42,544 nucleotides of DNA. Origin: a virus. The notes beneath the pieces are model-generated. The model did no database searches. It worked only from the letters and a program-made list of their open reading frames with translations, and was not told the DNA's origin. The number at the start of each line of letters is the position of its first letter. Within the stretch, counting starts at the first letter, position 1. This document shows, in pieces, positions 3-41,104 of this stretch. Where the stretch lies: positions 1-42,544 of IMG/VR virus record IMGVR_UViG_3300042402_002483; one strand, written 5' to 3'. The position numbers were made by a program, and so were the translations under genes.

Positions 3-992
3 GTCCAGATGTTTGCGGCATGGCCGACCGCCAAGTTTATCGGCGTGACGGCGACGCCAGAGCGCCTCGATGGCAAGGGCCTCGGGGCCATGTTCGACCG
101 CATGGTCATGGGTCCGTCCGTCCAGTGGCTTATCGACAACGGATTCCTGGCTCAGCCTGTGTACTACGCGCCTCGTGAGGTGGTTGATCTATCTCAGGTT
201 CACACGATTGCCGGCGACTTCGATCGCTCCGAGACCGAGGAGATCGTTGATACACCACGGATTACGGGCGATGCCGTGACTCATTACGTGAGATTCTGTA
301 ACCGACAGCGGGCCGTCGCGTTCTGTATATCGGTCGCTCACGCTCAGCACGTCGCCGATACGTTCAACTCCTGCGGAATACCATCTGCTAGCATCGACGG
401 AACCCTAGATCCCGAGGTCCGAAAGCAGCGCGTGGAGGATCTAACCGCTGGAAAAATCCTGGTCCTTACCTCCTGCGAACTCATTTCCGAGGGATTCGAT
501 CTGCCGGCTGTGAACGCGGCCATCCTGCTTCGGCCGACTCAGTCTCTGTCTATGCACCTTCAGCAGGTGGGCCGGGCCCTGCGGCCGTACCCGGGCAAGG
601 CTAACGCCATCATCCTCGATCACGTCGGGAACTGTCTCCGCCATGGACTCGCTGAGCAGGAGCGCGACTGGGATCTCAGCGGGCGCGAGAAGAGATTAAA
701 GAAATCCTCCCTCGTTGAAACCAAGCAGTGCTCCAAGTGCTTCGCGATTTTTGCAGGAACCGTTTGCCCTCAGTGCGGATCGCAGCGTGAGATAGCCGCT
801 CGCGAAATCGAAGAGGTCGATGGTGAGCTTCAGCGCCTGTCGATCGAAGATATCTCCAAGAAACGCGAAGATCGCCGTGAAGAAGGTAAATGCAAAACGC
901 TCGACGACTTCCGAGCACTCGCCAAGCAGCGGGGATATAAGTTAGGCTGGGCCTTCTTCCGCTGGCAAGCACGTCAACGCAAATCTCTATGA
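3..992 (+). CDS. Superfamily 2 DNA helicase, C-terminal part (5' end outside window)
   Basis: The reading frame is open to the left edge, so this is the C-terminal portion of a longer protein. Seen: a VTATPERLDG motif (SF2 motif III type) near the start, a RecA-like second domain with LTSCELISEGFDLP and QQVGRALRP (motifs V and VI), then a possible zinc finger (CSKC, CPQC) around residues 240-260 and a charged C-terminus. The family uses ATP to unwind or remodel DNA, and phage members usually sit with primase and nuclease genes, as here. The Walker A and DEAD-box motifs must lie upstream of the window. It overlaps the next gene by 4 bases (ATGA), which implies translational coupling. Replication or recombination helicase is the likely role; a restriction-type helicase is less likely. 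Confidence 0.88.
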   Translation, partial: VQMFAAWPTAKFIGVTATPERLDGKGLGAMFDRMVMGPSVQWLIDNGFLAQPVYYAPREVVDLSQVHTIAGDFDRSETEEIVDTPRITGDAVTHYVRFCNRQRAVAFCISVAHAQHVADTFNSCGIPSASIDGTLDPEVRKQRVEDLTAGKILVLTSCELISEGFDLPAVNAAILLRPTQSLSMHLQQVGRALRPYPGKANAIILDHVGNCLRHGLAEQERDWDLSGREKRLKKSSLVETKQCSKCFAIFAGTVCPQCGSQREIAAREIEEVDGELQRLSIEDISKKREDRREEGKCKTLDDFRALAKQRGYKLGWAFFRWQARQRKSL

Positions 993-1360
993 CCGAATCC
1001 GAACTCCAAGCCCTGATCCTCCGCGCCGCTGGATCTAAACCGCACGTCCGCGTCTTCCGTAATCAGGTCGGCGAGGGCTACGTCGGTCAGGCGCTACGCG
1101 ATCCCGAAGGCGTCTTCCTGCGCGACGCACGTCACGTCCGCATGGGCCTGTTCCCCGGGTCCGGTGATCTCATCGGCTGGCGTACCATTACCGTGACACC
1201 CGACATGGTCGGCAAGCCTATCGCCCAATTCCTCTCCATCGAAGTAAAAACCAAAACCGGCCGGGTCCGTCCTGACCAACAGAACTGGCTCGACCAAATC
1301 ACCATAGCCGGCGGGCACGCCATCGTGGCGCGATCCGTTTCAGACACCGACAACCTATGA
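989..1360 (+). CDS. VRR-NUC domain nuclease
   Basis: A 123-residue protein with the short phage VRR-NUC layout: FRNQVGEG near residue 24, GSGDLIGW near residue 57 (catalytic Asp), then IEVKTKTGR near residue 84 (the E-x-K active-site pair) and a Q-x-x-W helix. VRR-NUC enzymes are PD-(D/E)XK nucleases that cut branched or structured DNA. All key residues are present, so it is probably active. The start codon overlaps the stop of the upstream helicase and its stop overlaps the next start, giving one coupled operon with the helicase and primase. A role in processing replication or recombination intermediates is inferred from this context. Confidence 0.88.
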   Translation: MTESELQALILRAAGSKPHVRVFRNQVGEGYVGQALRDPEGVFLRDARHVRMGLFPGSGDLIGWRTITVTPDMVGKPIAQFLSIEVKTKTGRVRPDQQNWLDQITIAGGHAIVARSVSDTDNL

Positions 1361-1554
1361 GCGACCCTACAATCCGCGCAGCTGCTATCACGCAGGCCCT
1401 GCGCCAGACAGCGCCCGAACACCTCTCACCGGAAGCCACCTACCGCTTCTACGAACGCCTCGGAATCATCTGCGGCAACGCTGCCGCCACCGAGAGCCAG
1501 CTCCGCATCGCGCTCCTGGAGGCAGCGGAATACGACCTGAACAGCGACGACTAA
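1357..1554 (+). CDS. Small conserved-looking protein of the replication operon
   Basis: A 65-residue protein of mixed helix content with an acidic end (NSDD). No domain is recognised. It overlaps the upstream nuclease gene by 4 bases and is followed after about 20 bases by the primase-helicase, so it is co-transcribed with replication genes. Third codon positions are almost all G or C, as in its neighbours, which supports it as a real gene. Function unknown. Confidence 0.6.
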   Translation: MSDPTIRAAAITQALRQTAPEHLSPEATYRFYERLGIICGNAAATESQLRIALLEAAEYDLNSDD

Positions 1555-1575
1555 CCTCACTCACTCACTACAAGC

Positions 1576-3795: not shown

Positions 3796-3819
3796 CAGCC
3801 AGTGGAGGGGTCGTAATCA
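3792..3819 (+). promoter_or_regulatory. Putative sigma70-type promoter
   Basis: TTGACA (3792-3797), overlapping the primase stop codon, is followed after 16 bases by TAATCA (3814-3819). This fits a -35/-10 pair and would start transcription near 3826, just ahead of the next gene. Based on sequence match only. Confidence 0.45.
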
Positions 3820-4640: not shown

Positions 4641-4774
4641 CGCCGGGTCGGGCCCCCGCCCCCGGGCACCCCGCCCCCACGGTCTGGCCTTTAAGGTATC
4701 TTTTACTTAAGCCCACGGCCGGGGCCCATGCTAGCAGCAAGCGCCGTCCATGCTAGCAGCAACCCGGGGGCACC
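4641..4774. other. Non-coding GC-rich stretch
   Basis: Long C and G runs (around 4650-4680) are followed by an A/T-rich island (TTTAAGGTATCTTTTACTTAAG, which contains the inverted words CTTAA/TTAAG) and then a paired 15-bp repeat at 4726-4762. No gene is seen here. Confidence 0.5.
4726..4762. repeat. Two 15-bp direct repeats, 22-bp period, each with GCTAGC
   Basis: CCATGCTAGCAGCAA is present exactly at 4726-4740 and 4748-4762. The 22-base period is two helical turns, so both copies face the same side of DNA, as in tandem operator sites. Each copy contains the GCTAGC palindrome that is iterated across the window. They lie just downstream of the minus-strand gene that ends at 4775. Confidence 0.75.
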
Positions 4775-5119
4775 TCAGTCTAGGTCCGGCGGAGTGGGGG
4801 ACACGTCGAGCATCGGGGCTGAGGCTTTCCCTTTGCCGGCAGCGGCGGGGCGCTTGGGTAGGGATAGAAGATCCATCAGTTGGTCCCTGAGTTTGACTGA
4901 GGTGCTAACGAGGCAGGCGCGATCGGTTGGGCTCAGGCCCGGGGCGGCCGCTTCCTGATGGACGATCTCCAATTCCCGGCGTGCGCTCAGCACCATTCGC
5001 CCGGGCATCGTGAGCCGGCAGGCCGCTAGCACATTCTCATTCCGCTTCGCCCTCCTCGCCAACGATTGGGGGCTGGCATTGGGGGCAACAGATTCGAGCT
5101 CTGACATACCCTCAGACAT
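4775..5119 (-). CDS. Hypothetical protein, 114 residues, divergent to the AAA+ operon
   Basis: The only minus-strand gene in the left 10 kb. The likely start is MSEGMSELESV at 5119 (a second ATG lies at 5107); a longer frame upstream to 5224 has poor coding character and crosses the palindromic control region. The protein is mainly helical and charged in the middle (RRAKRNENVLAACRL, SARRELEIVHQEAA, KLRDQLMDLL) with a low-complexity Pro/Ala end. No family is recognised. Its position, divergent from the 5227-10453 operon across a palindrome, would suit a regulator, but there is no clear helix-turn-helix. A small terminase-like role cannot be excluded. Confidence 0.5.
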   Translation of the reverse strand: MSEGMSELESVAPNASPQSLARRAKRNENVLAACRLTMPGRMVLSARRELEIVHQEAAAPGLSPTDRACLVSTSVKLRDQLMDLLSLPKRPAAAGKGKASAPMLDVSPTPPDLD

Positions 5120-5340: not shown

Positions 5341-5341
5341 T

Positions 5342-6406
5342 ATGGATTACCAGAACATGACGGTTCAGGCCCTGAGGGCCGAAGCAAACCAGAGGAACAT
5401 TGGAACCGGCGGACAACGGGCCGTTGCATCCAAGGCTCAGTTGGTTCAGGCGCTGACGTCCGGAACATGGCCGGCCGGTTCCCCTGCCTCCGACCCAGCG
5501 GCGGCGCTTTCGGCCGCTCTGCTCGCAATGATGCCGGCCCCCGGGTTGGACGAGGAGCGAGTCCGGCAGATTGTCCGCGAGGAAGTCCCGGCCCCGCCCA
5601 CGATCCGGATTCGGGTCTCAGGCGCTGAGCCCATCGAAATCAGCCGGCAGCACGAAAGGTTTCCGCTCCTCCTCCAAACGCTGGCCGTGGGGCTGAACGT
5701 GCTCCTCGTAGGCCCGGCCGGAACCGGGAAAACGTCGGCGGCCCGGGCGGCGGCTCAGGCGCTGGGGTTGGAGTTTGCCTGCCTGAGTGTGGGACCCCAG
5801 ACGTCGAAAAGCGACTTGCTAGGGTTTACCGACGCCGGGGGCACGTACCGGGAGTCCATGTTTGTGGCTACGTACCGCGACGGCGGGGTGTTCCTCCTCG
5901 ATGAAATGGACGCTGGCAACGCCGGGGTTTTGACGGTTTTGAACGCCGCGCTATCGGGCGACGTGATGCCGACGCCGGCCGGAATGGTGAAGCGATCGGC
6001 CCGGTTTATCTGCGTTGCAGGCGCGAACACCTACGGCCAAGGCGCGAGCCGGCAGTACGTCGGCCGCAATCAGCTAGACGCCGCGACTTTGGATCGCTTC
6101 GCGGTTTTGGACTGGCCCGTCGATGAGGGCCTCGAAGCCGTGATGATCGGCCTGCCGGCCCCGGCTTCCGGTTTGGACGTCGGATGGGGCGGGACGCTTG
6201 ACCCGGCCGGATGGCTGGCCCGGGTGCGTGCTGTACGTGCTAGCGTTGAGCGGGAGCAGATTCGAGCCGTCGTTTCGCCCCGGGCGACGCTGGCCGGCGT
6301 TGCGCTTCTGGGTGCTGGCGTGGGGCGTCATTGGGTTGAGGAGATGGTCCTCTGGCGCGGTATGCCTTCCGACGCACGCACCCGGGTTGAAGGGGGTGCA
6401 AAATGA
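5342..6406 (+). CDS. MoxR/CobS-like AAA+ ATPase
   Basis: A 354-residue protein with, at the N-terminus, a small helical segment like a SAP/HeH fold (MTVQALRAEANQRNIGTGG) and then a linker. The AAA+ module follows: Walker A GPAGTGKT (about 124-131), Walker B VFLLDEMD (about 183-190), sensor I CVAGANT and an LDRF motif. This is the layout of the MoxR/CobS (AAA_5) group, ring ATPases that remodel protein partners. ATG 5342 is preferred over an in-frame TTG at 5300 because that TTG lies inside the preceding peptide gene. It overlaps the next gene by 4 bases. MoxR-type ATPases usually work with a VWA or CobT-like partner, so the next gene is the obvious candidate. Confidence 0.85.
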   Translation: MDYQNMTVQALRAEANQRNIGTGGQRAVASKAQLVQALTSGTWPAGSPASDPAAALSAALLAMMPAPGLDEERVRQIVREEVPAPPTIRIRVSGAEPIEISRQHERFPLLLQTLAVGLNVLLVGPAGTGKTSAARAAAQALGLEFACLSVGPQTSKSDLLGFTDAGGTYRESMFVATYRDGGVFLLDEMDAGNAGVLTVLNAALSGDVMPTPAGMVKRSARFICVAGANTYGQGASRQYVGRNQLDAATLDRFAVLDWPVDEGLEAVMIGLPAPASGLDVGWGGTLDPAGWLARVRAVRASVEREQIRAVVSPRATLAGVALLGAGVGRHWVEEMVLWRGMPSDARTRVEGGAK

Positions 6407-7224
6407 GCGAGTGGAAGCGAGTTGGAACGTCCCCGGCGACGGGATGCGGCCACTATGTGGCGAAGTGCTACACCACGGCGGAATTTTTGAATCCTCCGGC
6501 CCGGTTGTCTGAGTGCACCGCCTGCGAGACTCACCAAGCCGGCGCGGGGTTTATGGGCTCTGAGGATTACGCCAGTGGCGTGGCGCTCATCCGATCGGGT
6601 TGGCCGTCGGGCGCTGAACGTGCCCGGGAGATGGCTGAGAAGCTCGACGGCGTGCTAGCGGCCGCGAGCCGGCGCGAGACGTTTCAGACTGAGTGGGACG
6701 TCGCAGGTGATGAAGCCGACGTGAGCCGGTTCCTGTCGGGTGAGCCGGAAAACATGGCGCTGAGTGTTCCGGTTCCTGCTGAGGGGGACGGCGGCGCGGT
6801 TGTCCGGCTGGCGATTAAAGGGGGCGGTTCCGCTGAGGTGAGCGTTGAAACGTTTACCCGGGCGGCCGTGCTGATAACGGCGGCAGTGGATCGGATGGAA
6901 GCGGCCGGCCGGCGGGTTGAAGTCTGGGTTTACTATGCCGCGAAGTTCGGAACGGAGTTAGCTGAGGTTTGGCACCTGCTGAAACGGGCGGAAGACTCAG
7001 TGGACCTGCCCCGGCTGGTCGCCGGCCTGAGTGCGGCCGCTTTCCGGCGGGTTGGCTGGCGCTGGCGGGAATCGCGAAAGGCGCTGAAGCCGTCCCACTC
7101 CTACGGGTACTCGCAGGCGTCGGAACTGCCCCTCGAATCGGGTGAGATCCGGCTGGATGCGGTGCACGTCGGGCGGGTGATGAATGGCCTTGAGGCAGAG
7201 TGGATGCGGTCAATCGGAGCCTGA
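6403..7224 (+). CDS. DUF7192-like partner of the AAA+ ATPase
   Basis: A 273-residue protein. The N-terminus has His/Cys pairs (CGHYVAKCY, then CTACETH) that could bind zinc. Next come a GVALIRSGWPSGAERAREM segment and a DVSRFLSGEPENM motif, which from memory are typical of phage DUF7192 proteins found beside CobS/MoxR-like ATPases. The middle (RAAVLITAAVDRMEAAGRRVEVWVYYAA) looks like an alpha/beta core comparable to the CobT/VWA partner role, but no MIDAS motif (DxSxS) is visible. The 4-base overlap with the ATPase gene supports a shared complex. The substrate is unknown; the family name rests on recall, not a search. Confidence 0.65.
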   Translation: MSEWKRVGTSPATGCGHYVAKCYTTAEFLNPPARLSECTACETHQAGAGFMGSEDYASGVALIRSGWPSGAERAREMAEKLDGVLAAASRRETFQTEWDVAGDEADVSRFLSGEPENMALSVPVPAEGDGGAVVRLAIKGGGSAEVSVETFTRAAVLITAAVDRMEAAGRRVEVWVYYAAKFGTELAEVWHLLKRAEDSVDLPRLVAGLSAAAFRRVGWRWRESRKALKPSHSYGYSQASELPLESGEIRLDAVHVGRVMNGLEAEWMRSIGA

Positions 7225-7324: not shown

Positions 7325-7951
7325 ATGAGTCAGAACATTAAAGCCCGGGTCCTCCGAATTGACCCGGCGGCGCGGACGATTACAGCGGCGATCGATACCT
7401 TCCAAAGCGCCCGGGAATGGATCGGGGCGGACTTGTTAGAGCGGGTGGGGTGCGGGGCCGGCGTTGACGTCTGGATCGATGAGGAGGGAATGCTCCGCGA
7501 CGGGGCGGACCACTGGATCCTTGGCGGCGACCAGATGCTTGCTGGCCGGGCCGTTATGCTAGGCGGGGCGCTCGGGGAGTGGGTTGACCTGCCGATCCCG
7601 ACCGGAGTCGCGGCAGGGGCGATCGCTTGGATTCCGGCCGGGTTCCGGCGTCGCGCTCAGGAAATCGCCGACGGTATGCGCCCGGTCGCGGTGTCGTGGG
7701 ACGCTGAGGGGATGGCGCAGCTGGACGCGATGAACCGGGAGCAGACCGGCCGGGTTGAGCTGCTGGCAGTGGCGTCGATCCCGGCGCTGCTGGCCGGGGA
7801 GGCGCTGGAGCTGGGGGACGTCGTGACGTCTGCGGATGGCCGAACCGGGTTCGTCAACGCGATCGACGGGGACGTGATCACGGTGCGGTTCATAGACGGG
7901 ACATGGACTTACCCCCGGGCGCAGCTTGCGAAGGTTGAGATAATCGACTGA
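7325..7951 (+). CDS. DUF3846-like protein with C-terminal beta domain
   Basis: A 208-residue protein. Residues 1-80 resemble phage DUF3846 proteins: a short beta start, then VDVWIDEEGMLRDGADHWILGGDQMLAGRAVMLGG. The C-terminal 45 residues (LELGDVVTSADGRTGFVNAIDGDVITVRFIDGTW) form a repeated-turn beta pattern like KOW or SH3-type modules. The family is common in phage early regions; its function is not known to me. The start is placed at ATG 7325 after ATAAAAAT. It is separated from its neighbours by GC-rich hairpins on both sides, so its expression may be tuned separately. Confidence 0.6.
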   Translation: MSQNIKARVLRIDPAARTITAAIDTFQSAREWIGADLLERVGCGAGVDVWIDEEGMLRDGADHWILGGDQMLAGRAVMLGGALGEWVDLPIPTGVAAGAIAWIPAGFRRRAQEIADGMRPVAVSWDAEGMAQLDAMNREQTGRVELLAVASIPALLAGEALELGDVVTSADGRTGFVNAIDGDVITVRFIDGTWTYPRAQLAKVEIID

Positions 7952-8024: not shown

Positions 8025-8237
8025 ATGATAACACTAATCGACACGTTTAACGGGCGCTCGCTGAGCCGGCACCGGACATTGGAAAACGCCGTGCTAGCAC
8101 AGAGGAAGCACAGTGCCCAGGTGATAAAAAACAACGGGCCGGGGTCCTATGTGACTTACTGCTTCGAGGCCGACGGCGAGCCGGTTGGATGGGATAAAAT
8201 CGAATCCTTAAAGATGGAAATCGAGGGACGCCGATGA
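8025..8237 (+). CDS. Hypothetical protein, 70 residues
   Basis: A small alpha/beta protein (MITLIDTFNGRSLSRHRTLENAVLAQRKH at the front, a beta-like GSYVTYCFEADGEPV in the middle). No family is recognised, though the pattern resembles short phage accessory proteins that process an aligned residue list. The start follows CATATAAAACC with no Shine-Dalgarno sequence, like the gene at 7325. A 4-base overlap couples it to the next gene. The GCTAGC palindrome at 8093 is read here as the rare Leu codon CTA plus Ala. Confidence 0.55.
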   Translation: MITLIDTFNGRSLSRHRTLENAVLAQRKHSAQVIKNNGPGSYVTYCFEADGEPVGWDKIESLKMEIEGRR

Positions 8238-8748: not shown

Positions 8749-9008
8749 CCCTCGACGAAGCTCAATTATCAACCCGGCTGGCCATGCTCGTGGGGCCCGA
8801 GTCCGTTCGGGGCCCGGTGTTGTCGGCCTATGACGCCCTGCTGCTAGCTCGGGAAATCCACAGGTGGGGCCGGGATCTGCCGCAGGGATGCGAAGAGTTC
8901 CTAGCCAACTGCCTGCGTCGTCGTGAGCGCCGGCTGACCAAGGACTCCGCCCGGGATCTGGTTGTGCTGGCTGTTGACTACTGCGGAAAACGCCTTACGG
9001 TGTACTGA
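8745..9008 (+). CDS. Hypothetical protein, 87 residues
   Basis: A helical protein with a basic centre (FLANCLRRRERRLTKDSARDLVV). No family is recognised. It is the last of four coupled small genes and ends just before a 174-base gap rich in hairpins. GCTAGC at 8843 is read as CTA-GCT (Leu-Ala) amid two CTG leucine codons, an example of rare-codon use tied to the palindrome. Confidence 0.55.
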   Translation: MTLDEAQLSTRLAMLVGPESVRGPVLSAYDALLLAREIHRWGRDLPQGCEEFLANCLRRRERRLTKDSARDLVVLAVDYCGKRLTVY

Positions 9009-9182: not shown

Positions 9183-9527
9183 ATGACAGCCGAATTGCTA
9201 GCAGCACTGATCGCCGTGGAATCCGGCGGGAACGACCTCGCCCGAGGCCGGCACGGGGAACTCGGCGCTTTGCAGGTGCGCTCCTGCGTCGTGAAGGACG
9301 TGAACCGAGTCGTCGGGGGGAATTATCGCTGGTCCGAGATGACCAACCGGGTGACGGCTACCCGAGTCGCTCGGGCGTACCTCGATCACTGGGGTTCACC
9401 GAGTCGTCTGGGGAGAAAACCGACTGACCGGGATCTGGCGATGATCTGGCATCATGGCCCGACGGGCTGGAGGCGAGGGTCGATAACGTATTGGAAGCGG
9501 GTACAGGCTCGGATGGGTGCCTCCTAA
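9183..9527 (+). CDS. Lytic transglycosylase-like lysin
   Basis: A 114-residue protein with the signature of small SLT/goose-type lysozyme folds. IAVESGGND near residue 10 carries the presumed catalytic Glu13, and GELGALQVR follows near residue 25. A helical end (RVARAYLDHWG, then MIWHHGPTGWRRG) completes the short domain. It would cleave the glycan strands of peptidoglycan. There is no signal peptide or membrane helix, so export would need a holin; two holin-like genes lie far off at 41.4 kb. It could instead be a virion-associated enzyme. It is preceded by the hairpin-rich gap and starts at ATG 9183. Confidence 0.72.
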   Translation: MTAELLAALIAVESGGNDLARGRHGELGALQVRSCVVKDVNRVVGGNYRWSEMTNRVTATRVARAYLDHWGSPSRLGRKPTDRDLAMIWHHGPTGWRRGSITYWKRVQARMGAS

Positions 9528-31382: not shown

Positions 31383-33422
31383 CTATTCGGAGAGTAACGG
31401 GCAGGCGACGCGGCTGAGATCGCCGTAAATATCCTCTTGAAGGCGTTGAGCAACCATCGCCACGCGCTTGAGCCGGAAGCGGCCAGTGTTCACGTACCGC
31501 AGCTGGAACTCATAGCCATCACGAGTAAATCCCCCGGTCTGCACGTCACACTTGTCCGGAGGCTGCGGGAGGGCAATGCGCGATCTGGCTGGCGGCTGGT
31601 AGTATTTGACCTCTTGGCAGTTAATCACCGCAGGAGGGCATGAAATCTCGCCTGGCTCGCAGTTGCGGTACTTGGCGCAGTCTTTAATCTCAGCCCATGG
31701 TTGCCAGCACTCGCCCTCGTTAGCCTTGAAGTAGACCTTAGCTTCGATATTGCCCATTACCTGGTCGTACCACTGCTCGGCGCTAACAAGGCGCTTCTTG
31801 TTTGTAGGTTCACCAAACGTCAGTGAGCGGGTCTCAATGGTCCAGTCGATCGGTACATCATCGAACCCATCGAAATCAAACTGGCCGTTCTTCGTGACTT
31901 CAAAAAGACCGATGTCCCCTTGATTCAGTCCAAACATAAAGCAGCGTTCTTGCTTCTGGATTCGGATCGTCAGCATCTGGAACACATCGACTCCAGTCCA
32001 GACTCCCTCCCATGCCGGCGGGAGTTTTCTGCCTATGCCCGAGACCAGATCAAAGTCCAGCACTACGACCCCTCGGTGTACGATACCTCGGTTGTTGACC
32101 TTCTGAGGCTGAATGGTCATCAGCATCCGATTGTCAAAGTTCACGGAGCTAGCAGCCGTCAGGTAAAAATCCGTGTCGTAAGCCAACGCACGGGTCACTT
32201 GTCGGCTGATCGGAGTATTTCCAAGCTCAGTAAAGTCGCGCCTGGCGTAGATCAACGAGCGAATACCGTCCTGAGCACGGAAGAAAAGATCACCGTTTAC
32301 CGGCACGATGGATTCGTGGTTGAACGATCCGAAGTTCAGGAGTGCAAATCGCTGGATAGGATAACTGAGATCCTTCCAAACATCCCGGTCCACAGGCGCG
32401 TTAAACGCGTAAGTGGCGGTCGGGGTGAACACCAGCAGGTCGCCGTCGCCAAGGGACGTGTCCAGGTTGGCCGCGAATGCCAGCCCTGTAATCGGACCGT
32501 TTGAGACCGCAAAGGCGCCGCCTTCATTGATGAACGTGTTTTCCGTGAATCGAATCACGCTGTCTCGACCAAAAGCAGGATCGCCGTAGACTAGGTCTCC
32601 GCCGTAGTATTCCGATCCATTAGCAACCCAGAGCCGGCCTTTTCCGTAAGCCATCGGGCCTCCAACGGGAACTTCATTGCTTGCAGCTCGTCTAAACGAA
32701 GTTCCGTCGTAGAGATATGGCGCATTCTGCTCGTCTTGAATGATCAACCAGTTCTCTGCCTGCTGAAAGTAAACGTGATCCGCATTCGGATTATTTGCCG
32801 CTAGCAAATATCCGGTGAAATTCGGTCCCAAAAGAGGTCCAGCATCAACTCCTGGGCTGTAGGTCGTGAAAGTTGTTGGGCTGGGAATCGTCTGGACAAT
32901 GAAGTCTCCGAAAAATCCTGCGGAAAAACTTGCTGCAACAGGCTCCGGAAGTCGCACCACCATTCCTGGAAATAATCCATGCGGCGCTCCGCAGACGTAA
33001 GTCGCAACATTTGACACGCGGCCACGTGTGCTTACGGAAAATGTGCTGGTTTGCGGAGTTTGATCTGTGACTAGGAAATTATTTCCTATGTCGATCTGGA
33101 AGACTTTGCCTCCGATTGAAGCGTAAATGTAAGGGTCTCCGTTGTCGTTGGTGTAAGATCCGCACCCTTGAAAAAACCCCTCTTTAAACGCCGATTGCAC
33201 CGCAGCGTTGTAGTAACCTCCGTTGTAGAGAACGGCGGGATCGTTAAACGTCAGCAGCTTGGTCCAAATCCCCGGCCGCGCTTTCGGGAATCCTCCGCGC
33301 ACCGTCGTGTTCACCGCCCATGCTAGCTGGTTGGGTTGGATGAGTGAGGGCGAAAAACCGCTATCCACCCCACCTTCAGCGGTGAGGAGGCCATCTACTA
33401 TGCGATTTTTTTCTGCGACCAT
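31383..33422 (-). CDS. Tail nozzle/tubular-B-like protein, 679 residues
   Basis: The preferred start is ATG 33422 (MVAEKNRIVDGLLTAEGGVDSGFSPSLI), which shares bases with the divergent terminase start; a TTG at 33464 would overlap terminase further. The N-terminal AWAVNTTVRGGFPKARPGI and the following beta propeller-like parts (ADHVYFQQAENWLIIQDEQNAPYLYDGTSFRRA) are typical of podovirus nozzle proteins. One copy of the tailspike-type module (VSNVATYVCGAPHGLFPGMVV) is inserted near residue 145. Late Cys-rich loops (DCAKYRNCEPGEISCPP) are unusual. The N-terminal position at the head of the minus block suits a tail protein. Confidence 0.68.
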   Translation of the reverse strand: MVAEKNRIVDGLLTAEGGVDSGFSPSLIQPNQLAWAVNTTVRGGFPKARPGIWTKLLTFNDPAVLYNGGYYNAAVQSAFKEGFFQGCGSYTNDNGDPYIYASIGGKVFQIDIGNNFLVTDQTPQTSTFSVSTRGRVSNVATYVCGAPHGLFPGMVVRLPEPVAASFSAGFFGDFIVQTIPSPTTFTTYSPGVDAGPLLGPNFTGYLLAANNPNADHVYFQQAENWLIIQDEQNAPYLYDGTSFRRAASNEVPVGGPMAYGKGRLWVANGSEYYGGDLVYGDPAFGRDSVIRFTENTFINEGGAFAVSNGPITGLAFAANLDTSLGDGDLLVFTPTATYAFNAPVDRDVWKDLSYPIQRFALLNFGSFNHESIVPVNGDLFFRAQDGIRSLIYARRDFTELGNTPISRQVTRALAYDTDFYLTAASSVNFDNRMLMTIQPQKVNNRGIVHRGVVVLDFDLVSGIGRKLPPAWEGVWTGVDVFQMLTIRIQKQERCFMFGLNQGDIGLFEVTKNGQFDFDGFDDVPIDWTIETRSLTFGEPTNKKRLVSAEQWYDQVMGNIEAKVYFKANEGECWQPWAEIKDCAKYRNCEPGEISCPPAVINCQEVKYYQPPARSRIALPQPPDKCDVQTGGFTRDGYEFQLRYVNTGRFRLKRVAMVAQRLQEDIYGDLSRVACPLLSE

Positions 33423-33423: not shown

Positions 33424-35238
33424 ACGCTTGAACCTATTGAAAGGCCGCAGCAGCATTCCCGCAAGATGAATGAAAGCCCAGATTACCTGTCTATACCGTG
33501 GCGTACAAAAGACCGCTTTCTCATCGAAGCCGAAATGGTTCGTCGCGGCGGTTACATAATGTCCGGTGGCGTCAAGTACGGATGCGGGAAATATCATCAC
33601 TTCAAAGCGGCCATGACGGCGCTTTGGCCTCACTTCGATTGGCACATCTGGTCTGACCTGCTAATCAAGACTTTCGCGGAAAATCAAGAGGTTGGAATCA
33701 TGGGCCCAGGATCATCTGGCAAGACCTACACCTCTGCAGCATTCGGGCTCTGCACGTTTTACATCTACCCTACCGGCACCTCGATCATCATGTCGTCAAC
33801 GACGCGTGAGGGTCTCCAGCTGCGAATCTGGGGCTCGATCAAGGAGTTGCACAACAAGGCCAAGGCCCGCCGGGAATGGCTTCCTGGGCGCGTTATCGAG
33901 AGCCGGTTTATCCTGACCAGTTCTGACCAAGACGCCGAGGCGCAGGATTTCCGCGATGGAATCATCGGTGTAGCGTGCAAGGTTGGTGGTACGTTCGTTG
34001 GCCTCTCGAACTACGTCGGACTCAAGAACGACCGAGTGATGCTGATTGCAGACGAGGCGTCTCTTATGAGCCGAGGGTTCCTCGATTCAGTCGCCAACCT
34101 TCGCAAGAATCCTGAGTTCAAGCTGATCGCGATGGGGAATCCCAAGGATCGCAACGACGCGCTTGGGGTTGTCTGTGAGCCGCACTCTACGATGGGCGGC
34201 TGGGAAGGCATTGAATACCTTGAGCAGACACGCACCTGGAGAACGCGGGCTCCAGGAGGGGTTGCTGTCCAGCTGTGCGGGTACGACACGCCGAACGCAA
34301 AGTTTCCGAAAGGCACTAATCCGTACCGAGGCATCATCACGCCAGAGCAGATTCAGGCGGACTTGGATTACTACGGCCGAGACTCGTTGCAGTTCTCGAT
34401 GATGAACCTCGGGCTGCTGCCCCGAGACGGCGGTACGCGGCGCGTGGTAACTATGTCGCTGTGCGAGCAGAACCAGGCGTTCGATGAAATTATTTGGCAG
34501 GGCGCCGACAAGATCACACGAATCATTGGGATCGACGCGGCGTACTCAGGCATCGGTGGTGACCGATGCGTTATGATCGACCTTCAGTACGGCCCGGACA
34601 GCACCGGGCGAATCGTGCTAGCATTCGCTGAGGCCCCGATCGTAATCCCTGTTACGGCCGTCAAAGCGCAGCAGGCGGAGGAGCAGATTGCCGAGTACGT
34701 GCTTCTGTACTGCAAGCAACGCAACATCCCGCCTAATCAAGTGGGATTCGATTCCACTGGACGCGGCACGCTAATGTCTGCGTTCGCCCGCCTGTGGTCG
34801 CCTGAGGTTGTGCCAATCGAGTTTGGTGGTCGCCCGACGGATCGCCCTGTTCGGAAAGGTGATCCAAAGACCGAGCGTGAAGCCTACGGCAAGATGGTCA
34901 CAGCCCTCTGGTATTCGTCGCGCCTGCTGATCGAATCCAAGCAGCTGAGGAAACTTCCCCGGGAAGTCGCTGAGGAAGGGTCGATGCGCGAATGGGGAAT
35001 CTCCCGCACTGGTTTGATCGACGTGGAGCCCAAGCACAAAACTAAGGAACGCATGGGCAGATCCCCTGATTTATGGGACTCTTTCGTGGTCGCACTCGAA
35101 ATGGCTCGCAGAACGGGATTTGAGATTGCAGGCGGGCAGGGGGTTGGTATTGTCAAGCGACAGACACCAAAGTGGCTGACACGTCTGTCAGATAAGCGTC
35201 GCACGATGGATACTGAGCATTCGCTAACCTATTCCTAA
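33421..35238 (+). CDS. terL: Terminase large subunit
   Basis: A 605-residue packaging motor. Seen: Walker A GPGSSGKT (about 95-102), Walker B VMLIADEAS (about 206-214), a coupling-type GNPKD, and the RNase H-like nuclease: IIGIDAAYSGIGGDR (Asp near 370), VGFDSTGRG, and DLWDSFVVALEMA near the end. All acidic nuclease residues appear intact. ATG 33421 is used; ATG 33466 (MNESPDYL) is an alternative that would leave a 590-residue protein and free the divergent start. The small subunit was not identified. The gene heads the head-assembly operon and is followed after four bases by SSB. Confidence 0.9.
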   Translation: MTLEPIERPQQHSRKMNESPDYLSIPWRTKDRFLIEAEMVRRGGYIMSGGVKYGCGKYHHFKAAMTALWPHFDWHIWSDLLIKTFAENQEVGIMGPGSSGKTYTSAAFGLCTFYIYPTGTSIIMSSTTREGLQLRIWGSIKELHNKAKARREWLPGRVIESRFILTSSDQDAEAQDFRDGIIGVACKVGGTFVGLSNYVGLKNDRVMLIADEASLMSRGFLDSVANLRKNPEFKLIAMGNPKDRNDALGVVCEPHSTMGGWEGIEYLEQTRTWRTRAPGGVAVQLCGYDTPNAKFPKGTNPYRGIITPEQIQADLDYYGRDSLQFSMMNLGLLPRDGGTRRVVTMSLCEQNQAFDEIIWQGADKITRIIGIDAAYSGIGGDRCVMIDLQYGPDSTGRIVLAFAEAPIVIPVTAVKAQQAEEQIAEYVLLYCKQRNIPPNQVGFDSTGRGTLMSAFARLWSPEVVPIEFGGRPTDRPVRKGDPKTEREAYGKMVTALWYSSRLLIESKQLRKLPREVAEEGSMREWGISRTGLIDVEPKHKTKERMGRSPDLWDSFVVALEMARRTGFEIAGGQGVGIVKRQTPKWLTRLSDKRRTMDTEHSLTYS

Positions 35239-35953: not shown

Positions 35954-36296
35954 AAATACGGCGCAAGGGGTAAGGATTCTTGCGGAATGGCTGGGCGATG
36001 GCGGTATTCCCGTTGATCGCTCAGTAGCGCAGCATCGTCTTGATACGTGTCTGCACTGCCTGCACAACAAACCCACCAAGCCAGATGCAATCGAGAAGAC
36101 TGTCGCTGAGGTCATCATTGAGCAGGAGCAGCTGCGCCACGACATGGCTATGATCCTTCAAGGTGAGTCTAATGCTGGCACCTGCGAAGTCTGCGGCTGC
36201 TACCTGAAGCTCAAGGTCTGGGTGCCATTGAGTTACCTAGGCGATCGTGAAATGCCTGATAAATGCTGGATTTCGCAGGAACGGAAAGCAATCTGA
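35904..36296 (+). CDS. Zinc-binding protein of the head operon, 130 residues
   Basis: Start chosen at ATG 35904 (MLNQGYQAVARAVERVKN); a longer frame to 35838 would lie on top of the previous gene. Cysteine pairs are CLHCLH (about 51-56) and CEVCGCYLKLKVWVPL with a later CW. This pattern of two to three knuckles, C-x-x-C ... C-x-V-C-x-C-x-L-K-L-K, is common in small phage proteins near the portal. A metal-binding structural or DNA-binding role is likely but unproven. Confidence 0.62.
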   Translation: MLNQGYQAVARAVERVKNTAQGVRILAEWLGDGGIPVDRSVAQHRLDTCLHCLHNKPTKPDAIEKTVAEVIIEQEQLRHDMAMILQGESNAGTCEVCGCYLKLKVWVPLSYLGDREMPDKCWISQERKAI

Positions 36297-36303: not shown

Positions 36304-38577
36304 ATGAGTTTCAAAGAACCAAGTAGAGTCTGGAATGTTGTTAGTGCGATGCTAGAGGCTGAACAGCCTCGTTCTCGCAATCGCGCTCGCATTAACGCTA
36401 CCTTTAACGGTAATCCTCCATACAGCGAAGAGGAGGCTCGCGACAACAAGATCCAGACAAACGTCAACTTCCTGGAAGGTACGCGCATCATTCATGCGGC
36501 ACGCCAGCAGTTTACGAACGCGTTCCTGAAGCCTCAGAATTACTTTTCTGTGGGCCTCGATACCGGCCCTCGGGATAAGCGCACTGAGTGGGGCAACATC
36601 ATTACCAAGCAGTTGAACCGCGTGATGAAGCGGTCTCCGAAGTATTCCACGGTCTTGGAATCTCAGTTTGCTGCGACGGTTCTGCACGGTATCGGGCCGG
36701 TGACTTGGCTACGTGATCGTGAATGGTGCCCGTCGGCTCGTGGAACCGAAGACATTCTGGTTCCTACGAACACGCTGACCACAATGGAGAATATGTCGCA
36801 CTTCGCGATCTACACCTCCTTCACAGCTGCGGACCTAATCCGCATGACTCGCGGTGAGAACGTCGATCCCGGCTGGAACCTAAAGCTGGTGAACGAGCTG
36901 CTGGCCGCGATGATCCAGCGCGAGGCATCGAGTCTCCAGGTAAACGATTGGTCCGGCCAATACTTCCCTGAAAAGATTGAGGAAGACTTCAAGGAGAACT
37001 CTGGTTACTGGGGTTCCGATGCGACTCCGGTGCTGCGGTGCTACGATTTCTACTTCCTAGACACGACCAGCGACGATCCTTCTTGGCGCCGCCGCATCAT
37101 CGTTGACCAGTACAACAGCGGCATCGGTAATATGCAGACCGCTGGCCAATGGCTCTTTGATGCCGGCGACCGCTGCTACGGCCGGGATATCTTCGAGCTG
37201 ATGCACATCCAGTTCGCTGACGGCGCTGTGGTTCCGCCGTTCCGCTGGCACTCGGTGCGTTCCCTTGGCTACCTGCTTTATGCGGTGTGCCACCTCCAGA
37301 ATCGCCTGCGCTGTAAGTTCACCGACTCCGTTTTCGAGCAGATGCTCTGGCTCTTCCGTAATGTCGCTGATGGTGACATGGAACGGATGGAGAAGATCGA
37401 CCTGGTGAACATGGGCGTGATTCCCGAGGGTCTCTCCTGGGTTCCGCAGTCTGAGCGTCACGTTGTCGATTACCCGATGCTGTCCGGCGCTATGGCGATG
37501 CACCGCCAGATCATGTCTGAGTCGAGTGCTGCCTACACGCAGGACGTGAATGACGGATCATCGAAGGAGCTGACCGCTACCGAGGTTATGGCTCGCGTGA
37601 ACAACGCCAACGCGCTGATGGGCTCTATGCTTACACGCGCCTACACGCAGCAGAATTTCCAGTACCGCGAGATCGCTCGCCGGTTCTGTACGATCGACCA
37701 TCCCGACTGCAAGCAGTTCCGTCGCAAGTGCGAGGCTGACGGTGTTGATCCCTCCGTCTGGAGCAACCTCGACGCATGGGACATCATGCCCGAGCGCGTC
37801 ATGGGTTCCGGCAACAAGATGCTGGAGATCGCTCAGGCTGACCGCCTGATGGCTATCCGACCGCTGCTAGCTCCGGATTCTCAGGCCGAGGTCGTGCATA
37901 TGTATGTCGAGGCCAACACCGATGATCCCCTCCTGGCGAATCGCTTGGCTCCGATCGACAACAAGCCGGTCTCCCCGGCTGTCGAACGCGCTACCCTGGC
38001 GTGGGGCACGCTTATCGACGGTCAACCTGTCGTTATCGCAAGCGCACTCAATCGCCCCGAGTACATCCAGACGCTGCTTCAGATGCTTGGTGGCGCCATT
38101 GGCCGCATTGAAAAGGAAGGTGGCGGCATGACCACGATGGATCGCGTGCTGGGATTGGCCAACGTAATCCAGCATATCCAGGAGCAGATCCAGTTGATAT
38201 CCCAGGACCCGGGCCAGGAGCAGAACATCAAGCTCTACAACGACGGCATCAGCCAGGCTTCAAACTACATCAAGGGCTACGTACAGCGCCTCCAAGAGCA
38301 GGCTCAAGCTCAAGCCGAAGCTGGCGCAGCTGGCAACGGAATGGACCCCGAGACGGCTGCAAAGATCCAGGCGATGCTCATCACCGCGCAGTCCAAGTCG
38401 CAGATCGCTGCGGCAAACTCCGAACAGAAGCGGACTCAGAAGCAGGTCGCGTTCGATCAAGATCAGCAGCGCAAGAATGCTAGCACGATCGCTGAAGCTC
38501 AGCGTAAAGGCGCTCTGACTCGCGCAGACATTGCCGCCATGGATCTCAAGACTCAGGCCAATATTCTCAACCAATGA
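36304..38577 (+). CDS. Portal protein
   Basis: A 757-residue protein. Start at ATG 36304 (MSFKEPSRVWNVVSAML); an upstream frame to 36247 overlaps the previous gene. It has the size and pattern of podovirus portals of the P22/N4-like kind: TNVNFLEGTRIIHAARQQFTNAF near the front, a stem region, and a long C-terminal helical barrel rich in Gln/Ala (QAQAEAGAAGNG, then AKIQAMLITAQSKSQIAAANSEQKRTQ). Twelve copies form the ring through which DNA enters and leaves. It is followed by a small gene and the scaffold. Confidence 0.82.
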   Translation: MSFKEPSRVWNVVSAMLEAEQPRSRNRARINATFNGNPPYSEEEARDNKIQTNVNFLEGTRIIHAARQQFTNAFLKPQNYFSVGLDTGPRDKRTEWGNIITKQLNRVMKRSPKYSTVLESQFAATVLHGIGPVTWLRDREWCPSARGTEDILVPTNTLTTMENMSHFAIYTSFTAADLIRMTRGENVDPGWNLKLVNELLAAMIQREASSLQVNDWSGQYFPEKIEEDFKENSGYWGSDATPVLRCYDFYFLDTTSDDPSWRRRIIVDQYNSGIGNMQTAGQWLFDAGDRCYGRDIFELMHIQFADGAVVPPFRWHSVRSLGYLLYAVCHLQNRLRCKFTDSVFEQMLWLFRNVADGDMERMEKIDLVNMGVIPEGLSWVPQSERHVVDYPMLSGAMAMHRQIMSESSAAYTQDVNDGSSKELTATEVMARVNNANALMGSMLTRAYTQQNFQYREIARRFCTIDHPDCKQFRRKCEADGVDPSVWSNLDAWDIMPERVMGSGNKMLEIAQADRLMAIRPLLAPDSQAEVVHMYVEANTDDPLLANRLAPIDNKPVSPAVERATLAWGTLIDGQPVVIASALNRPEYIQTLLQMLGGAIGRIEKEGGGMTTMDRVLGLANVIQHIQEQIQLISQDPGQEQNIKLYNDGISQASNYIKGYVQRLQEQAQAQAEAGAAGNGMDPETAAKIQAMLITAQSKSQIAAANSEQKRTQKQVAFDQDQQRKNASTIAEAQRKGALTRADIAAMDLKTQANILNQ

Positions 38578-40075: not shown

Positions 40076-40083
40076 GCTACCAG

Positions 40084-40117
40084 GCCCGGTGTGGTTCAAA
40101 CCTCATCGGGCTTTTTT
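40084..40117 (+). terminator. Intrinsic terminator after the scaffold gene
   Basis: GCCCG (40084-40088) pairs with CGGGC (40107-40111), with an inner GGT/ACC helix, followed by TTTTTT (40112-40117). It starts 9 bases after the scaffold stop and includes the last codons of the convergent HNH-like gene. Confidence 0.85.
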
Positions 40118-40608
40118 ACGTCTACATTCGGAGGAGTATAGGGCTTTGAACAAATCCTGCGGTTTTTTGGCTGATCTCGCAACGGTATCCAGCGGCAGTT
40201 TTCCTTAAGGTAACCCAAGTCGTTGTCGATTCGATCCAAGCTGTATCCTTCAGGGCGATCCTTCATGTCCTCGTAGAACCCTGTGAACGACATCCATTTT
40301 TCGCAAATTCCAATACCCCGCTCAAGGTAGTACCGCGAATGAGCATGGTTTGGATTCAAGCACCTATCCTTCATTTTGATCCAAGATCGGTAGGCGCCCG
40401 AATAATACTTGCCGTGCTTAGTCGATATCTTGGTTGCGTATTCTGATGCGGTGCATTGATTGCACCTCCACAGCCTGGCCTCTTTTTCCAATCTCCGAAC
40501 GACATCAATGCGAACCAGTTTGTGCGTGCCACAGGTAACGCACGACAGGTCAAGGTGCTTCCATCTTCCAACTCTTACGATTGGGAGGCTTGATTCAAAA
40601 GATTGCAC
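40096..40608 (-). CDS. HNH-like endonuclease
   Basis: A 170-residue protein. The front has a zinc ribbon-like CVTCGT ... CNQC pair (about 23-52). Next are SWIKMKDRCLNPNHAHSRYYLERGIGICEKW and YSLDRIDNDLGYLKENCRWIPLRDQPKNRR, the typical end of HNH/AP2-associated phage endonucleases (D-R-I-D-N-x-x-G-Y---N-C-R-W). Such enzymes are often free-standing homing endonucleases. The start is GTG 40608, overlapping the upstream gene by 34 bases, and there is no clear Shine-Dalgarno sequence. The stop lies within the opposite-strand terminator, so the gene may be a late arrival in this slot. Confidence 0.72.
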   Translation of the reverse strand: MQSFESSLPIVRVGRWKHLDLSCVTCGTHKLVRIDVVRRLEKEARLWRCNQCTASEYATKISTKHGKYYSGAYRSWIKMKDRCLNPNHAHSRYYLERGIGICEKWMSFTGFYEDMKDRPEGYSLDRIDNDLGYLKENCRWIPLRDQPKNRRICSKPYTPPNVDVKKPDEV

Positions 40609-40889
40609 GCCGCGATGATAGCGCCGCTACCAATCATTGCAAGACCCCACGCCGCGCAGCTCCAAAACTTCGCAGAGAGCTTCGTGCCCGGTGTGTCACA
40701 ACCATGCCGGGCACGGAAGCTCTTTCGGTTCTTCGGGATGTGCTTCTTGATGGTCATGTTCGGATCGCCGAAACGCACGAGCTTTACTTGCCCACCCTCC
40801 TTAGCCAAGACAGCAGACTTCTTCGGGGCGCCTGGCGTAGACTTCGGTTTGTTGTACCCGGCAAATTTCTGGCCCCGGTAGGTAATCAT
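40575..40889 (-). CDS. DUF6321-like phage protein with added membrane tail, 104 residues
   Basis: Start at ATG 40889 (MITYRGQKFAGYNKPK), an ATGA overlap with the lipoprotein stop; a longer frame to 40913 is rejected. The phrases KFAGYNKPKSTPGAPKKSAVLAKEGGQVKLVRFG, then KNRKSFRARH and KLSAKFWSCAAWG match, from memory, a widespread small phage family (DUF6321-like) of unknown function. Here the family part is followed by WGLAMIGSGAIIAACNLL, a possible membrane segment. The usual QQG-SP loop is altered. It sits in the lysis cluster. Confidence 0.68.
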   Translation of the reverse strand: MITYRGQKFAGYNKPKSTPGAPKKSAVLAKEGGQVKLVRFGDPNMTIKKHIPKNRKSFRARHGCDTPGTKLSAKFWSCAAWGLAMIGSGAIIAACNLLNQASQS

Positions 40890-41104
40890 TTGGCTTTCGG
40901 CAGTACGTACCACCCAGCTGGAAGGGTAACCCGACTCGGACCGGAGAGCTTGCCGTCCTTATCGAACGCGTAGACGCGAGCGCGGACGGGATCTGCTAGC
41001 ATCACGGGATCACCGCTAGGAACGAGGATCACTTTTGTCTGCTGGCAGCCCAGGCAGATTGGCAACACGAGCAGCCAAATCGTTCTTGAGAGGCTTTGGC
41101 GCAT
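40886..41104 (-). CDS. Small lipoprotein (spanin-like candidate), 72 residues
   Basis: The second ATG (41104) is preferred: GGAAG lies 6 bases before it, too close for the ATG at 41110. A basic start, a hydrophobic core (TIWLLVLPICLGC) and Cys at the end of the signal suggest a lipoprotein, though the -3 residue is Cys, so the lipobox is imperfect. Mature part: QQTKVILVPSGDPVMLADPVRARVYAFDKDGKL and TLPAGWYVLP, seen in phage lipoproteins beside holins. Its first 90 bases lie within the end of the preceding small gene, as in Rz/Rz1 pairs. Outer-membrane spanin subunit is the best guess. Confidence 0.55.
   Translation of the reverse strand: MRQSLSRTIWLLVLPICLGCQQTKVILVPSGDPVMLADPVRARVYAFDKDGKLSGPSRVTLPAGWYVLPKAK

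What the first reader, a model, noticed from the sequence alone, without database searches (positions are those of the whole stretch)
387..41000. GCTAGC is a highly iterated palindrome in this phage
About 38 copies were counted by hand, near 1 per kb. With base use as in the window, roughly a dozen are expected by chance. CTAG is usually scarce in bacterial DNA, yet nearly half of the CTAG sites here sit in GCTAGC, where about 8% would be expected. Copies lie in genes and gaps. Several coding ones use the rare Leu codon CTA (8843, 9197, 6654), so the motif, not protein sequence, seems favoured. Possible roles: methylation mark, Chi-like recombination signal, repressor or organising site, or a host-wide palindrome such as HIP1 in cyanobacteria.
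Basis: partly seen in the sequence, partly recalled or inferred. Interest (0 to 1): 0.82.

Follow-up and report, generated by a model that had tools for sequence, protein, structure and literature searches.

The report
Scattered 8-base site in uncultured phages
A family of uncultured phages carries the 8-letter DNA word TGCTAGCA and one-letter variants of it roughly every one to two thousand bases, apparently kept by selection even inside genes, which looks like a genome-wide set of docking sites for an unidentified DNA-binding protein.

Summary
In detail: GCTAGC occurs exactly 38 times, against 12 expected from third-order chance; in genes 36 against 7.7 when synonymous codons are shuffled. 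The hexamer is not the real unit. Copies with a T before or an A after carry the whole excess (33 against 2.9); the other 5 match chance (5.1). The unit is TGCTAGCA with graded one-base tolerance: 46 class sites against 5.1. All 21 family genomes read are enriched. The two poorest in CTAG use TGCTGGCA instead, and a distant member has drifted to TGCTGGCA/TGATGGCA. Variants replace one another at the same positions. In 19 of 19 genomes carrying one 88-aa gene, a site lies in its leader. None of 548 bacterial genomes counted reaches the phage density, but the host is unknown, so a host-wide palindrome is disfavoured, not excluded. No Chi-like strand bias was seen. Most likely this is a lineage-specific, dispersed binding-site network, perhaps working like mycobacteriophage stoperators. 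The binding protein is not identified, and a phage sharing only three detected genes has the same motif, so a host protein remains a serious rival.

The parts
386..393 (.). class site TGCTAGCA, in helicase gene
1383..1390 (.). class site TGCTATCA
4729..4736 (.). class site TGCTAGCA, intergenic pair (first)
   Evidence: kept in 4 of 4 aligned far genomes
4751..4758 (.). class site TGCTAGCA, intergenic pair (second, 22 bp on)
   Evidence: kept in 4 of 4 aligned far genomes
5024..5031 (.). class site CGCTAGCA
6238..6245 (.). class site TGCTAGCG
6653..6660 (.). class site TGCTAGCG
7761..7768 (.). class site TGCTGGCA
8092..8099 (.). class site TGCTAGCA
8842..8849 (.). class site TGCTAGCT
9196..9203 (.). 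class site TGCTAGCA
10747..10754 (.). class site TGCTGGCA, kept in 7 of 8 aligned far genomes
11370..11377 (.). class site TGCTAGCG, kept in 10 of 13 far genomes
11564..11571 (.). class site TGCTAGCA
13855..13862 (.). class site TGCTAGCA in RecE-like gene, a class site in 13 of 13 far genomes (10 TGCTAGCA, 3 TGCTGGCA)
14506..14513 (.). class site TGCTAGCG
15453..15460 (.). class site AGCTAGCA; TGCCAGCA or TGCTAGCA in 6 of 9 far genomes
16167..16174 (.). class site TGATAGCA; CGCTAGCA or TGCCAGCA in 7 of 9 far genomes
16308..16315 (.). class site TGCTAGCA (0 of 7 far genomes)
17232..17239 (.). class site TGCTAGCT
17540..17547 (.). class site TGCCAGCA
18359..18366 (.). class site TGCCAGCA
18830..18837 (.). 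class site TGCTAGCT
19485..19492 (.). class site TGCTAGCT
21663..21670 (.). class site TGCTAGCT
22028..22035 (.). class site TGATAGCA
23349..23356 (.). class site TGCTAGCT
24612..24619 (.). class site TGCTAGCG
24992..24999 (.). class site TGCCAGCA (0 of 9 far genomes)
25604..25611 (.). class site CGCTAGCA
26272..26279 (.). class site TGCTAGCT (0 of 13 far genomes)
26452..26459 (.). class site TGCTGGCA (2 of 13 far genomes)
26857..26864 (.). class site TGCTAGCT (1 of 13 far genomes)
27620..27627 (.). class site CGCTAGCA
27953..27960 (.). class site CGCTAGCA
29332..29339 (.). class site TGATAGCA
31702..31709 (.). class site TGCCAGCA, kept in 11 of 13 far genomes
32147..32154 (.). class site AGCTAGCA
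32799..32806 (.). class site CGCTAGCA (0 of 13 far genomes)
33321..33328 (.). class site TGCTAGCT (0 of 13 far genomes)
34616..34623 (.). class site TGCTAGCA in terminase gene, a class site in 13 of 13 far genomes (10 TGCTAGCA, 3 TGCTGGCA)
36173..36180 (.). class site TGCTGGCA
37865..37872 (.). class site TGCTAGCT; TGCTAGCA or TGCTGGCA in 10 of 13 far genomes
38478..38485 (.). class site TGCTAGCA
40994..41001 (.). class site TGCTAGCA, kept in 8 of 13 far genomes
41040..41047 (.). class site TGCTGGCA, 46 bp from the last
4778..5107 (-). conserved 110-aa protein of unknown function, three helices in the model; candidate binder. Paired sites lie 19 and 41 bp past its last sense codon
13306..13557 (-). 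small HTH protein A, just after recE; candidate binder, not found in G029
13058..13468 (-). small HTH-like protein B; candidate binder, not found in G029
10795..11097 (-). small protein with an HTH-like stretch between two GRPR motifs; candidate binder, not found in G029 and several members
10151..10453 (+). HU/IHF-family protein; candidate binder, not found in G029

Best explanation
The GCTAGC copies are the visible core of a dispersed, lineage-specific network of binding sites with consensus TGCTAGCA. A sequence-specific protein, probably a symmetric dimer reading TGCT on each strand, binds the perfect palindrome best and tolerates one change (outer base, third base, or the flexible YR centre). 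The phages keep about 20 to 50 such sites per genome, including pairs past one gene and a fixed site in one gene leader. I think it most likely that the protein is phage-encoded and that bound sites restrain transcription across the genome, as stoperators do, or organise the phage DNA. Shown: the word, its graded degeneracy, selection at nucleotide level, interchange of variants, family-wide spread and drift. Inferred: that a protein binds, that it is a dimer, that it is phage-encoded, and what binding does. The confidence is for the phage-encoded binding network; the transcription-restraint reading alone is about 0.25.
For: Enrichment beyond third-order and synonymous nulls, and in each of 21 family genomes above the largest of 100 synonymous shuffles (pooled 562 against 109). 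Graded one-mismatch spectrum in 17 of the 21 genomes, with little tolerance at bases 2 and 7. Hexamers without the outer T/A are not enriched: 46 against 80.8 over the 21 genomes (my sum). Where CTAG is scarcest (observed/expected 0.21 and 0.22 in G020 and G021) TGCTGGCA takes over: 19 against 2.5 and 31 against 2.8. Window sites stay identical in 271 of 535 aligned cases against 177 expected from flanks, and 45 more have become another class word; same-composition control words give 6569 against 6334. Variants interchange at the same place. A leader site in 19 of 19 genomes holding the 88-aa gene. Drift in the distant member G029: TGCTGGCA 52 against 3.2, TGATGGCA 27 against 2.5. Two outgroup phages that share RecT and a weak RecE match are not enriched (G034 5 against 2.5, G032 3 against 3.2). 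None of 548 bacterial genomes counted is as dense.
Against: No binder is identified: HTH A, HTH B, HU and the GRPR protein were not found in G029, and the 110-aa protein, found there, has a three-helix model without a significant structural match. G089, in which only three window genes were detected, has the same motif (TGCTAGCA 13 against 1.0), which a host protein would explain more simply; it was found by a scan for the motif, so it is a selected case. Unlike stoperators, most sites are inside genes (632 coding, 67 intergenic, pooled) and palindromic, and no integrase was found among the ORFs scanned; repressor-like matches are weak (phrog_4583, E 0.066, for 10795-11097) or confined to G002 and G004. 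Exact retention is at or near background in G003, G005, G010, G014, G016, G020 and G021 (e.g. G021 3 against 3.1, G020 1 against 2.8). The site class was defined after seeing the mismatch spectrum of these genomes. A second palindrome, CAGCTG, is also enriched (47 against 19.1). TGCTGGCA is commoner on the coding strand (145 against 77), though codon use predicts an excess too (44.6 against 15.0).
Confidence: 0.5

Rival explanations
1. A host-encoded DNA-binding protein shared by the hosts of this family and of G089 binds TGCTAGCA, and the phages exploit or need it (for transcription, replication or DNA organisation).
For: Only a CobS-type ATPase, DUF7192 and one small protein of the window were detected in G089, yet it has TGCTAGCA 13 against 1.0 and TGCTGGCA 14 against 3.3, and 35 class sites in genes against 7.6 by synonymous shuffle. 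None of the five candidate proteins was found in all motif carriers.
Against: The preferred word drifts between members (TGCTAGCA, TGCTGGCA, TGATGGCA), which suggests a co-evolving phage protein; a conserved host protein would hold it more constant. Part of the drift can be CTAG avoidance.
Confidence: 0.25
2. A host-wide highly iterated palindrome like HIP1 of cyanobacteria, linked to an orphan methyltransferase; the phage merely matches its host.
For: A density near 1 per kb resembles HIP sites (Elhai 2015, PMC4390886, outline and passages read). The ferredoxin-like gene has its best hits in Pseudanabaena and Aphanizomenon phages, and 44 of 58 hit records are Synechococcus or Prochlorococcus phages, a hint of a cyanobacterial host.
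Against: TGCTAGCA reaches at most about 59 per Mb in 386 Cyanobacteriota, 34 per Mb in 49 genomes preselected for TGCTAGC clusters, and 32 per Mb in 115 genomes of the phylum of G061; the window has 259 per Mb (genome sizes are rounded). No methyltransferase family was hit among the window ORFs scanned. The host is unknown, so this is not decisive.
Confidence: 0.15
3. A Chi-like signal that protects phage DNA ends from the host's recombination nuclease.
For: The phage has RecT and RecE-like genes. TGCTGGCA shares GCTGG with known Chi sequences (recalled; GCTGGCGC as a Pseudomonas Chi: PMC5959072, search listing only).
Against: The strongest form is palindromic and the non-palindromic form lies on both strands (13/18 in G021, 22/30 in G029). 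The tolerated changes are those of a palindrome.
Confidence: 0.06
4. Compositional or codon-pair artefact, with tolerated palindromes standing out because others are avoided.
For: Many palindromes are strongly avoided in the window and CAGCTG is also enriched. The order-4 expectation is 32. Hexamer retention is no higher than that of several other words.
Against: Enrichment in two reading frames, intergenic copies denser than coding ones (1.35 against 0.72 per kb), codon-preserving nulls exceeded in all 21 genomes, graded octamer tolerance, octamer retained at 2.6 times expectation in far genomes.
Confidence: 0.04

Closest known systems
Stoperators of Cluster A mycobacteriophages (L5, TipsytheTRex): PMC9283540 and PMC6550527, passages read
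   Same: More than twenty short sites of one motif scattered over a phage genome; the motif differs between related phages; conserved sites beside particular genes.
   Different: Those sites are 13-bp and asymmetric, oriented with transcription, in promoters and short intergenic spaces, and bound by a known phage repressor of temperate phages. Here the site is an 8-bp palindrome, mostly inside genes, binder unknown, lysogeny not shown.
HIP1 (GCGATCGC) and alternate HIPs of cyanobacteria: PMC4390886, outline and passages read
   Same: Highly iterated palindrome at about 1 per kb, with one-base deviations and rapid gain and loss.
   Different: HIPs are a property of the cellular genome, most with methyltransferases for them; here no cellular genome examined shows the word at phage density, it is 50% GC (HIPs that replace HIP1 are 75-100%), and it is degenerate in the centre too.
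SPBRE sites of Bacillus phage SPbeta bound by MrpR: PMC10516654, passages read
   Same: One repeated element across a phage genome, first seen by computation, later shown to bind a phage master repressor.
   Different: 15-bp sites at about ten promoter regions, not dozens of sites inside genes.

Membership tests
Cluster A stoperators | Twenty or more copies of one motif dispersed over the phage genome | tested here: met
   46 class sites in the window; 20 to 49 in the 21 family genomes
Cluster A stoperators | Asymmetric site oriented with transcription | tested here: not met
   Palindromic consensus. The asymmetric variant TGCTGGCA occurs both ways in genes: 145 on the coding strand and 77 on the other, against 44.6 and 15.0 from codon shuffles, so both are enriched
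Cluster A stoperators | Sites mainly in short intergenic spaces and promoters | tested here: not met
   632 coding, 67 intergenic; intergenic density 1.9 times higher, with mechanical ORF calls
Cluster A stoperators | Bound by a phage repressor of a temperate phage | tested here: inconclusive
   No integrase among the ORFs scanned (not every ORF was scanned); only a weak repressor-family match for 10795-11097 and an XRE plus sigma-like protein in G002 and G004. Binding not testable here
HIP of cyanobacteria | High frequency in the cellular genome | tested here: inconclusive
   Not seen in 548 genomes sampled; host unknown
HIP of cyanobacteria | Methyltransferase for the sequence | not testable with these tools
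   None hit in the window ORFs scanned; the host is unknown and methylation cannot be read from sequence
HIP of cyanobacteria | GC-rich (75% or more) where it replaces HIP1 | tested here: not met
   TGCTAGCA is 50% GC; the rule and its one 50% exception, TCGATCGA, which only supplements HIP1, are from PMC4390886
Chi site | Non-palindromic with strand bias | tested here: not met
   13/18 and 22/30 on the two strands for the asymmetric variant; main word palindromic
Chi site | Alters the host recombination nuclease | not testable with these tools
   Biochemistry needed
SPBRE-type master-repressor sites | Sites in promoter regions | tested here: not met
   Mostly coding

The most novel reading that the evidence does not exclude
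A phage-borne counterpart of the HIP sequences: a phage lineage writes a dense, synonymous-compatible mark across its whole genome, read by a phage protein that coats or organises self DNA or restrains transcription everywhere, with the mark's spelling drifting between lineages as its reader evolves. DNA recently acquired by these phages might then lack the mark and gain it with residence.
Probability: 0.2. Interest if true: 0.85.

Novelty: new variant of a known kind. Interest (0 to 1): 0.6.

Why it matters
The dispersed phage binding-site networks I could find described belong to temperate phages with known repressors. Here a palindrome about as dense as HIP1 is kept by selection in an apparently phage-specific way, inside coding DNA, with its spelling drifting across a family that can be compared genome by genome. 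That gives a tractable case for the question of why some genomes accumulate highly iterated palindromes: the candidate readers are few and small, and the sites can be tested in vitro.

Tried and rejected
Host DNA in G009: this 92.5-kb contig has the motif almost only in its middle, which first looked like a prophage in motif-free host DNA. The flanks carry a different phage's terminase and tail fibre and are joined through a 1.16-kb repeat, so it is a chimera or two phages and says nothing about the host.

CobS/DUF7192 cassette as cause: among 17 family genomes holding the 110-aa gene, the 9 with the cassette all have 2 or 3 sites just past that gene and 0.66 to 1.08 class sites per kb; the 8 without have none there and 0.42 to 0.64 per kb. 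But G029 has the cassette and no site there; in shared aligned DNA the contrast is small (fewer sites in 6 of 8 pairs, equal in one, more in one); and two other phages with the cassette have no TGCTAGCA in about 40 kb each (RHph_X2_24 class sites 12 against 5.7, Tunturi_4 3 against 6.7). Left as a confounded correlation.

HTH A as binder: found in all 21 family genomes and G030 but not in G029; an apparent G029 match of the longer ORF overlaps recE in another frame and was discarded.

Even spacing: gaps are more even than chance in G026 and G018, more clustered in G015, G017 and G020, and unremarkable in the other 16.

One, G089, has the same spectrum; G130 has a longer palindrome; G086 has 7 against 1.0 and G087 8 against 2.2, not followed.

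RecE in 299 genomes of the phylum of G062: 0 matches at 1e-40; this shows little.

Rows left out: one search counted 28 family records; 20 were read in full and 8 were not, for want of calls. One search uses 17 of the 21 genomes. G009 was cut to its phage part. G019 is nearly identical to part of the window and is not independent.

Errors of mine: one search used plus-strand ORFs for 10.4-14.3 kb where the genes are on the minus strand; one search had one CDS out of frame. One search corrects both. Searches use a mechanical longest-ORF choice.


Full report
Observation. GCTAGC is present exactly 38 times in the 42,544-bp window, first at 387 and last at 40995. A third-order model predicts 11.9, and 200 third-order simulations gave a mean of 12.0 and a maximum of 24. 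The order-4 expectation is 32.3, but that model already contains GCTAG and CTAGC, which are mostly motif. Shuffling synonymous codons within the window's genes (500 shuffles) gives 7.7 against 36 observed (maximum 16), the largest deviation of the 64 six-base palindromes; CAGCTG is second (47 against 19.1) and many palindromes are avoided. Both reading frames that avoid a stop are raised: GCT-AGC 13 against 4.1, G-CTA-GC 23 against 4.0.

What the motif is. Splitting the hexamers by flanks shows that those with a 5' T or 3' A are 33 against 2.9 expected, the rest 5 against 5.1. Summed over the 21 family genomes the figures are 350 against 46.9 and 46 against 80.8 (my sums). The one-mismatch table, made on 17 of the 21 genomes in four groups, has TGCTAGCA at 17 to 37 times expectation, tolerance at the outer bases (in the window's group A over T over G, with no C at the 3' end), at position 3 (C to A) and at the centre (TA over TG/CA), and little at positions 2 and 7; small exceptions there are TTCTAGCA 5 against 2.0 and TACTAGCA 4 against 0.6, each in one group. 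I therefore defined a site class: TGCTAGCA, TGCTAGCT, TGCTAGCG, TGCTGGCA, TGCTATCA and their reverse complements. The class was chosen on these same genomes, so its enrichment is partly by construction; the retention and drift tests are less dependent on it. The window has 46 class sites against 5.1.

Relatives. Megablast found no match among 50,697 phage records for the first 25 kb, but a terminase scan gave 104 IMG/VR relatives, of which the best 80, at 81-100% identity, were kept. That several source contigs come from lakes is my recall of their numbers and was not checked. Of 28 family records counted, 20 were read in full; GCTAGC ranges from 0 to 33 in them. All 21 genomes, window included, have class-site enrichment of 4 to 10 times, each above the largest of 100 synonymous shuffles (pooled 562 against 109). 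The two genomes with the strongest CTAG depletion (observed/expected 0.21 and 0.22) have GCTAGC 2 and 0, but TGCTGGCA 19 against 2.5 and 31 against 2.8. A more distant member, G029 (terminase 76%, RecT 53%), has TGCTGGCA 52 against 3.2 and TGATGGCA 27 against 2.5; G030 has TGCTGGCA 18 against 2.3; two outgroup phages that share RecT and a weak RecE match are not enriched.

Selection. Window sites aligned to 20 relatives (535 cases) stay identical in 271 against 177 expected from flanking identity, and 45 more have become another class word; 17,807 control words of the same composition give 6569 against 6334. Among the 13 distant relatives the excess is clear for G004, G009, G011, G012, G015 and G002 and small or absent for G003, G005, G010, G014, G016, G020 and G021. 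Over these 13 the octamer TGCTAGCA is kept 2.6 times more than expected (44 against 16.9) and the hexamer 1.3 times; other words such as CAGCTG and CGGCCG reach 1.65, so hexamer retention alone is not special. At single positions the variants interchange: 13855 and 34616 are class sites in 13 of 13 far genomes, each 10 TGCTAGCA and 3 TGCTGGCA; 16167 is TGATAGCA here and CGCTAGCA or TGCCAGCA in 7 of 9; other sites (26272, 32799, 33321) are in none of 13.

Anatomy. Sites are spread over the genome, 632 in coding and 67 in intergenic DNA pooled over 21 genomes (0.72 and 1.35 per kb; mechanical ORF calls). Two arrangements recur. In 19 of 19 genomes that hold an 88-aa acidic gene, a class site stands at a nearly fixed place in its leader, after what looks by eye like a terminator hairpin: two TGCTGGCA 28 bp apart in 11 genomes, one site in the other 8 (TGCTAGCA in six, TGCTGGCA in G010 and G021), with the upstream copy changed to gctggta in those 8. 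The flanks there are conserved too, so position alone does not prove function. The window and G026 lack this gene. Second, 9 of 18 genomes have two or three sites 8 to 106 bp past the last codon of a conserved 110-aa protein (window 4778-5107, minus strand), 20 sites against 1.96 expected over the 18; the window's pair at 4729 and 4751 is one of these.

Who reads it. Candidates in the window are the 110-aa protein (three helices, no structural match at E below 0.001), two small HTH-like proteins next to recE (HTH-type model for one, with weak matches to AsnC, Mos1 and FapR, none at E below 0.001), a protein with an HTH-like stretch between two GRPR motifs (its likeness to the Hin DNA-binding domain is recalled, not searched), and an HU/IHF-family protein (PF00216, 5e-15). 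Of these five only the 110-aa protein was found in G029. Among family genomes it was missing from G018, G022, G024, G026 and G030, all contigs under 39 kb, where I take the region to be absent. G089, in which only three window genes were detected, has TGCTAGCA 13 against 1.0. This leaves a host protein as a serious rival.

Host-wide palindrome. TGCTAGCA per genome was counted in 49 genomes taken from a scan for TGCTAGC clusters (highest density 74 in 2.2 Mb), 386 genomes of the phylum of a Nodosilinea record, that is Cyanobacteriota (highest 287 in 4.9 Mb), and 115 of the phylum of an Opitutus-named record (highest 29 in 0.9 Mb) (two genomes counted twice, so 548). The window has 11 in 42.5 kb. 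A cyanobacterial host is hinted at by the ferredoxin-like gene but is not established.

Mechanism. Shown: a real, graded, nucleotide-level word under selection, spread through a phage family, with drifting spelling. Inferred: that a dimeric protein binds it, that this protein is phage-encoded, and that it acts across the genome by restraining transcription or organising DNA. A search for the word TGCTAGCA in 5.39 million open papers found one unrelated hit. Searches for GCTAGC with 'overrepresented' (24 papers, 20 listed), for overrepresented palindromes in phage genomes, for cyanophage with HIP1, and for dispersed palindromic octamers in phages listed nothing that by title and abstract start describes this system; these searches cover only that library and those words.

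Noticed in passing
whole window, coding sequence: CAGCTG is a second enriched palindrome (47 against 19.1 in synonymous shuffles, all three frames) and is among the top palindromes in most family genomes.
   Followed up: partly
whole window: Many six-base palindromes are absent or nearly so (CGCGCG, CCGCGG, CTCGAG, GTCGAC, CTGCAG), as under restriction pressure.
   Followed up: no
window 5300-7224: CobS-type ATPase with DUF7192 (phrog_249 and phrog_1909), an exchangeable cassette also found in Gordonia, Mycobacterium, Rhizobium and Tunturiibacter phages; its presence tracks the site pair at 4729/4751 in the family.
   Followed up: partly
window 15363-23495 (-): 2710-aa protein with a weak, below-cutoff ADP-ribosyltransferase match of polyvalent proteins; replaced by other very large ORFs in three relatives looked at.
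   Followed up: no
window 11019-11564 (-): Ferredoxin-family (phrog_3704) protein closest to Pseudanabaena and Aphanizomenon phage proteins, a hint of a cyanobacterial host.
   Followed up: partly
IMGVR_UViG_3300021962_000056 (L193-L197): 92.5-kb record joins a family phage to another phage through a 1.16-kb repeat of 96% identity; probably a chimera.
   Followed up: yes
IMGVR_UViG_3300043442_000535 (L493, L494): A different phage with 8 copies of TGCTAGCA, apparently most inside a longer palindrome TGTGCTAGCACA, operator-like.
   Followed up: no
window 1-42544: The window is probably incomplete: relatives carry a further 532-aa gene without a family match (a capsid role is my guess) and an 88-aa gene that have no match here.
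   Followed up: partly
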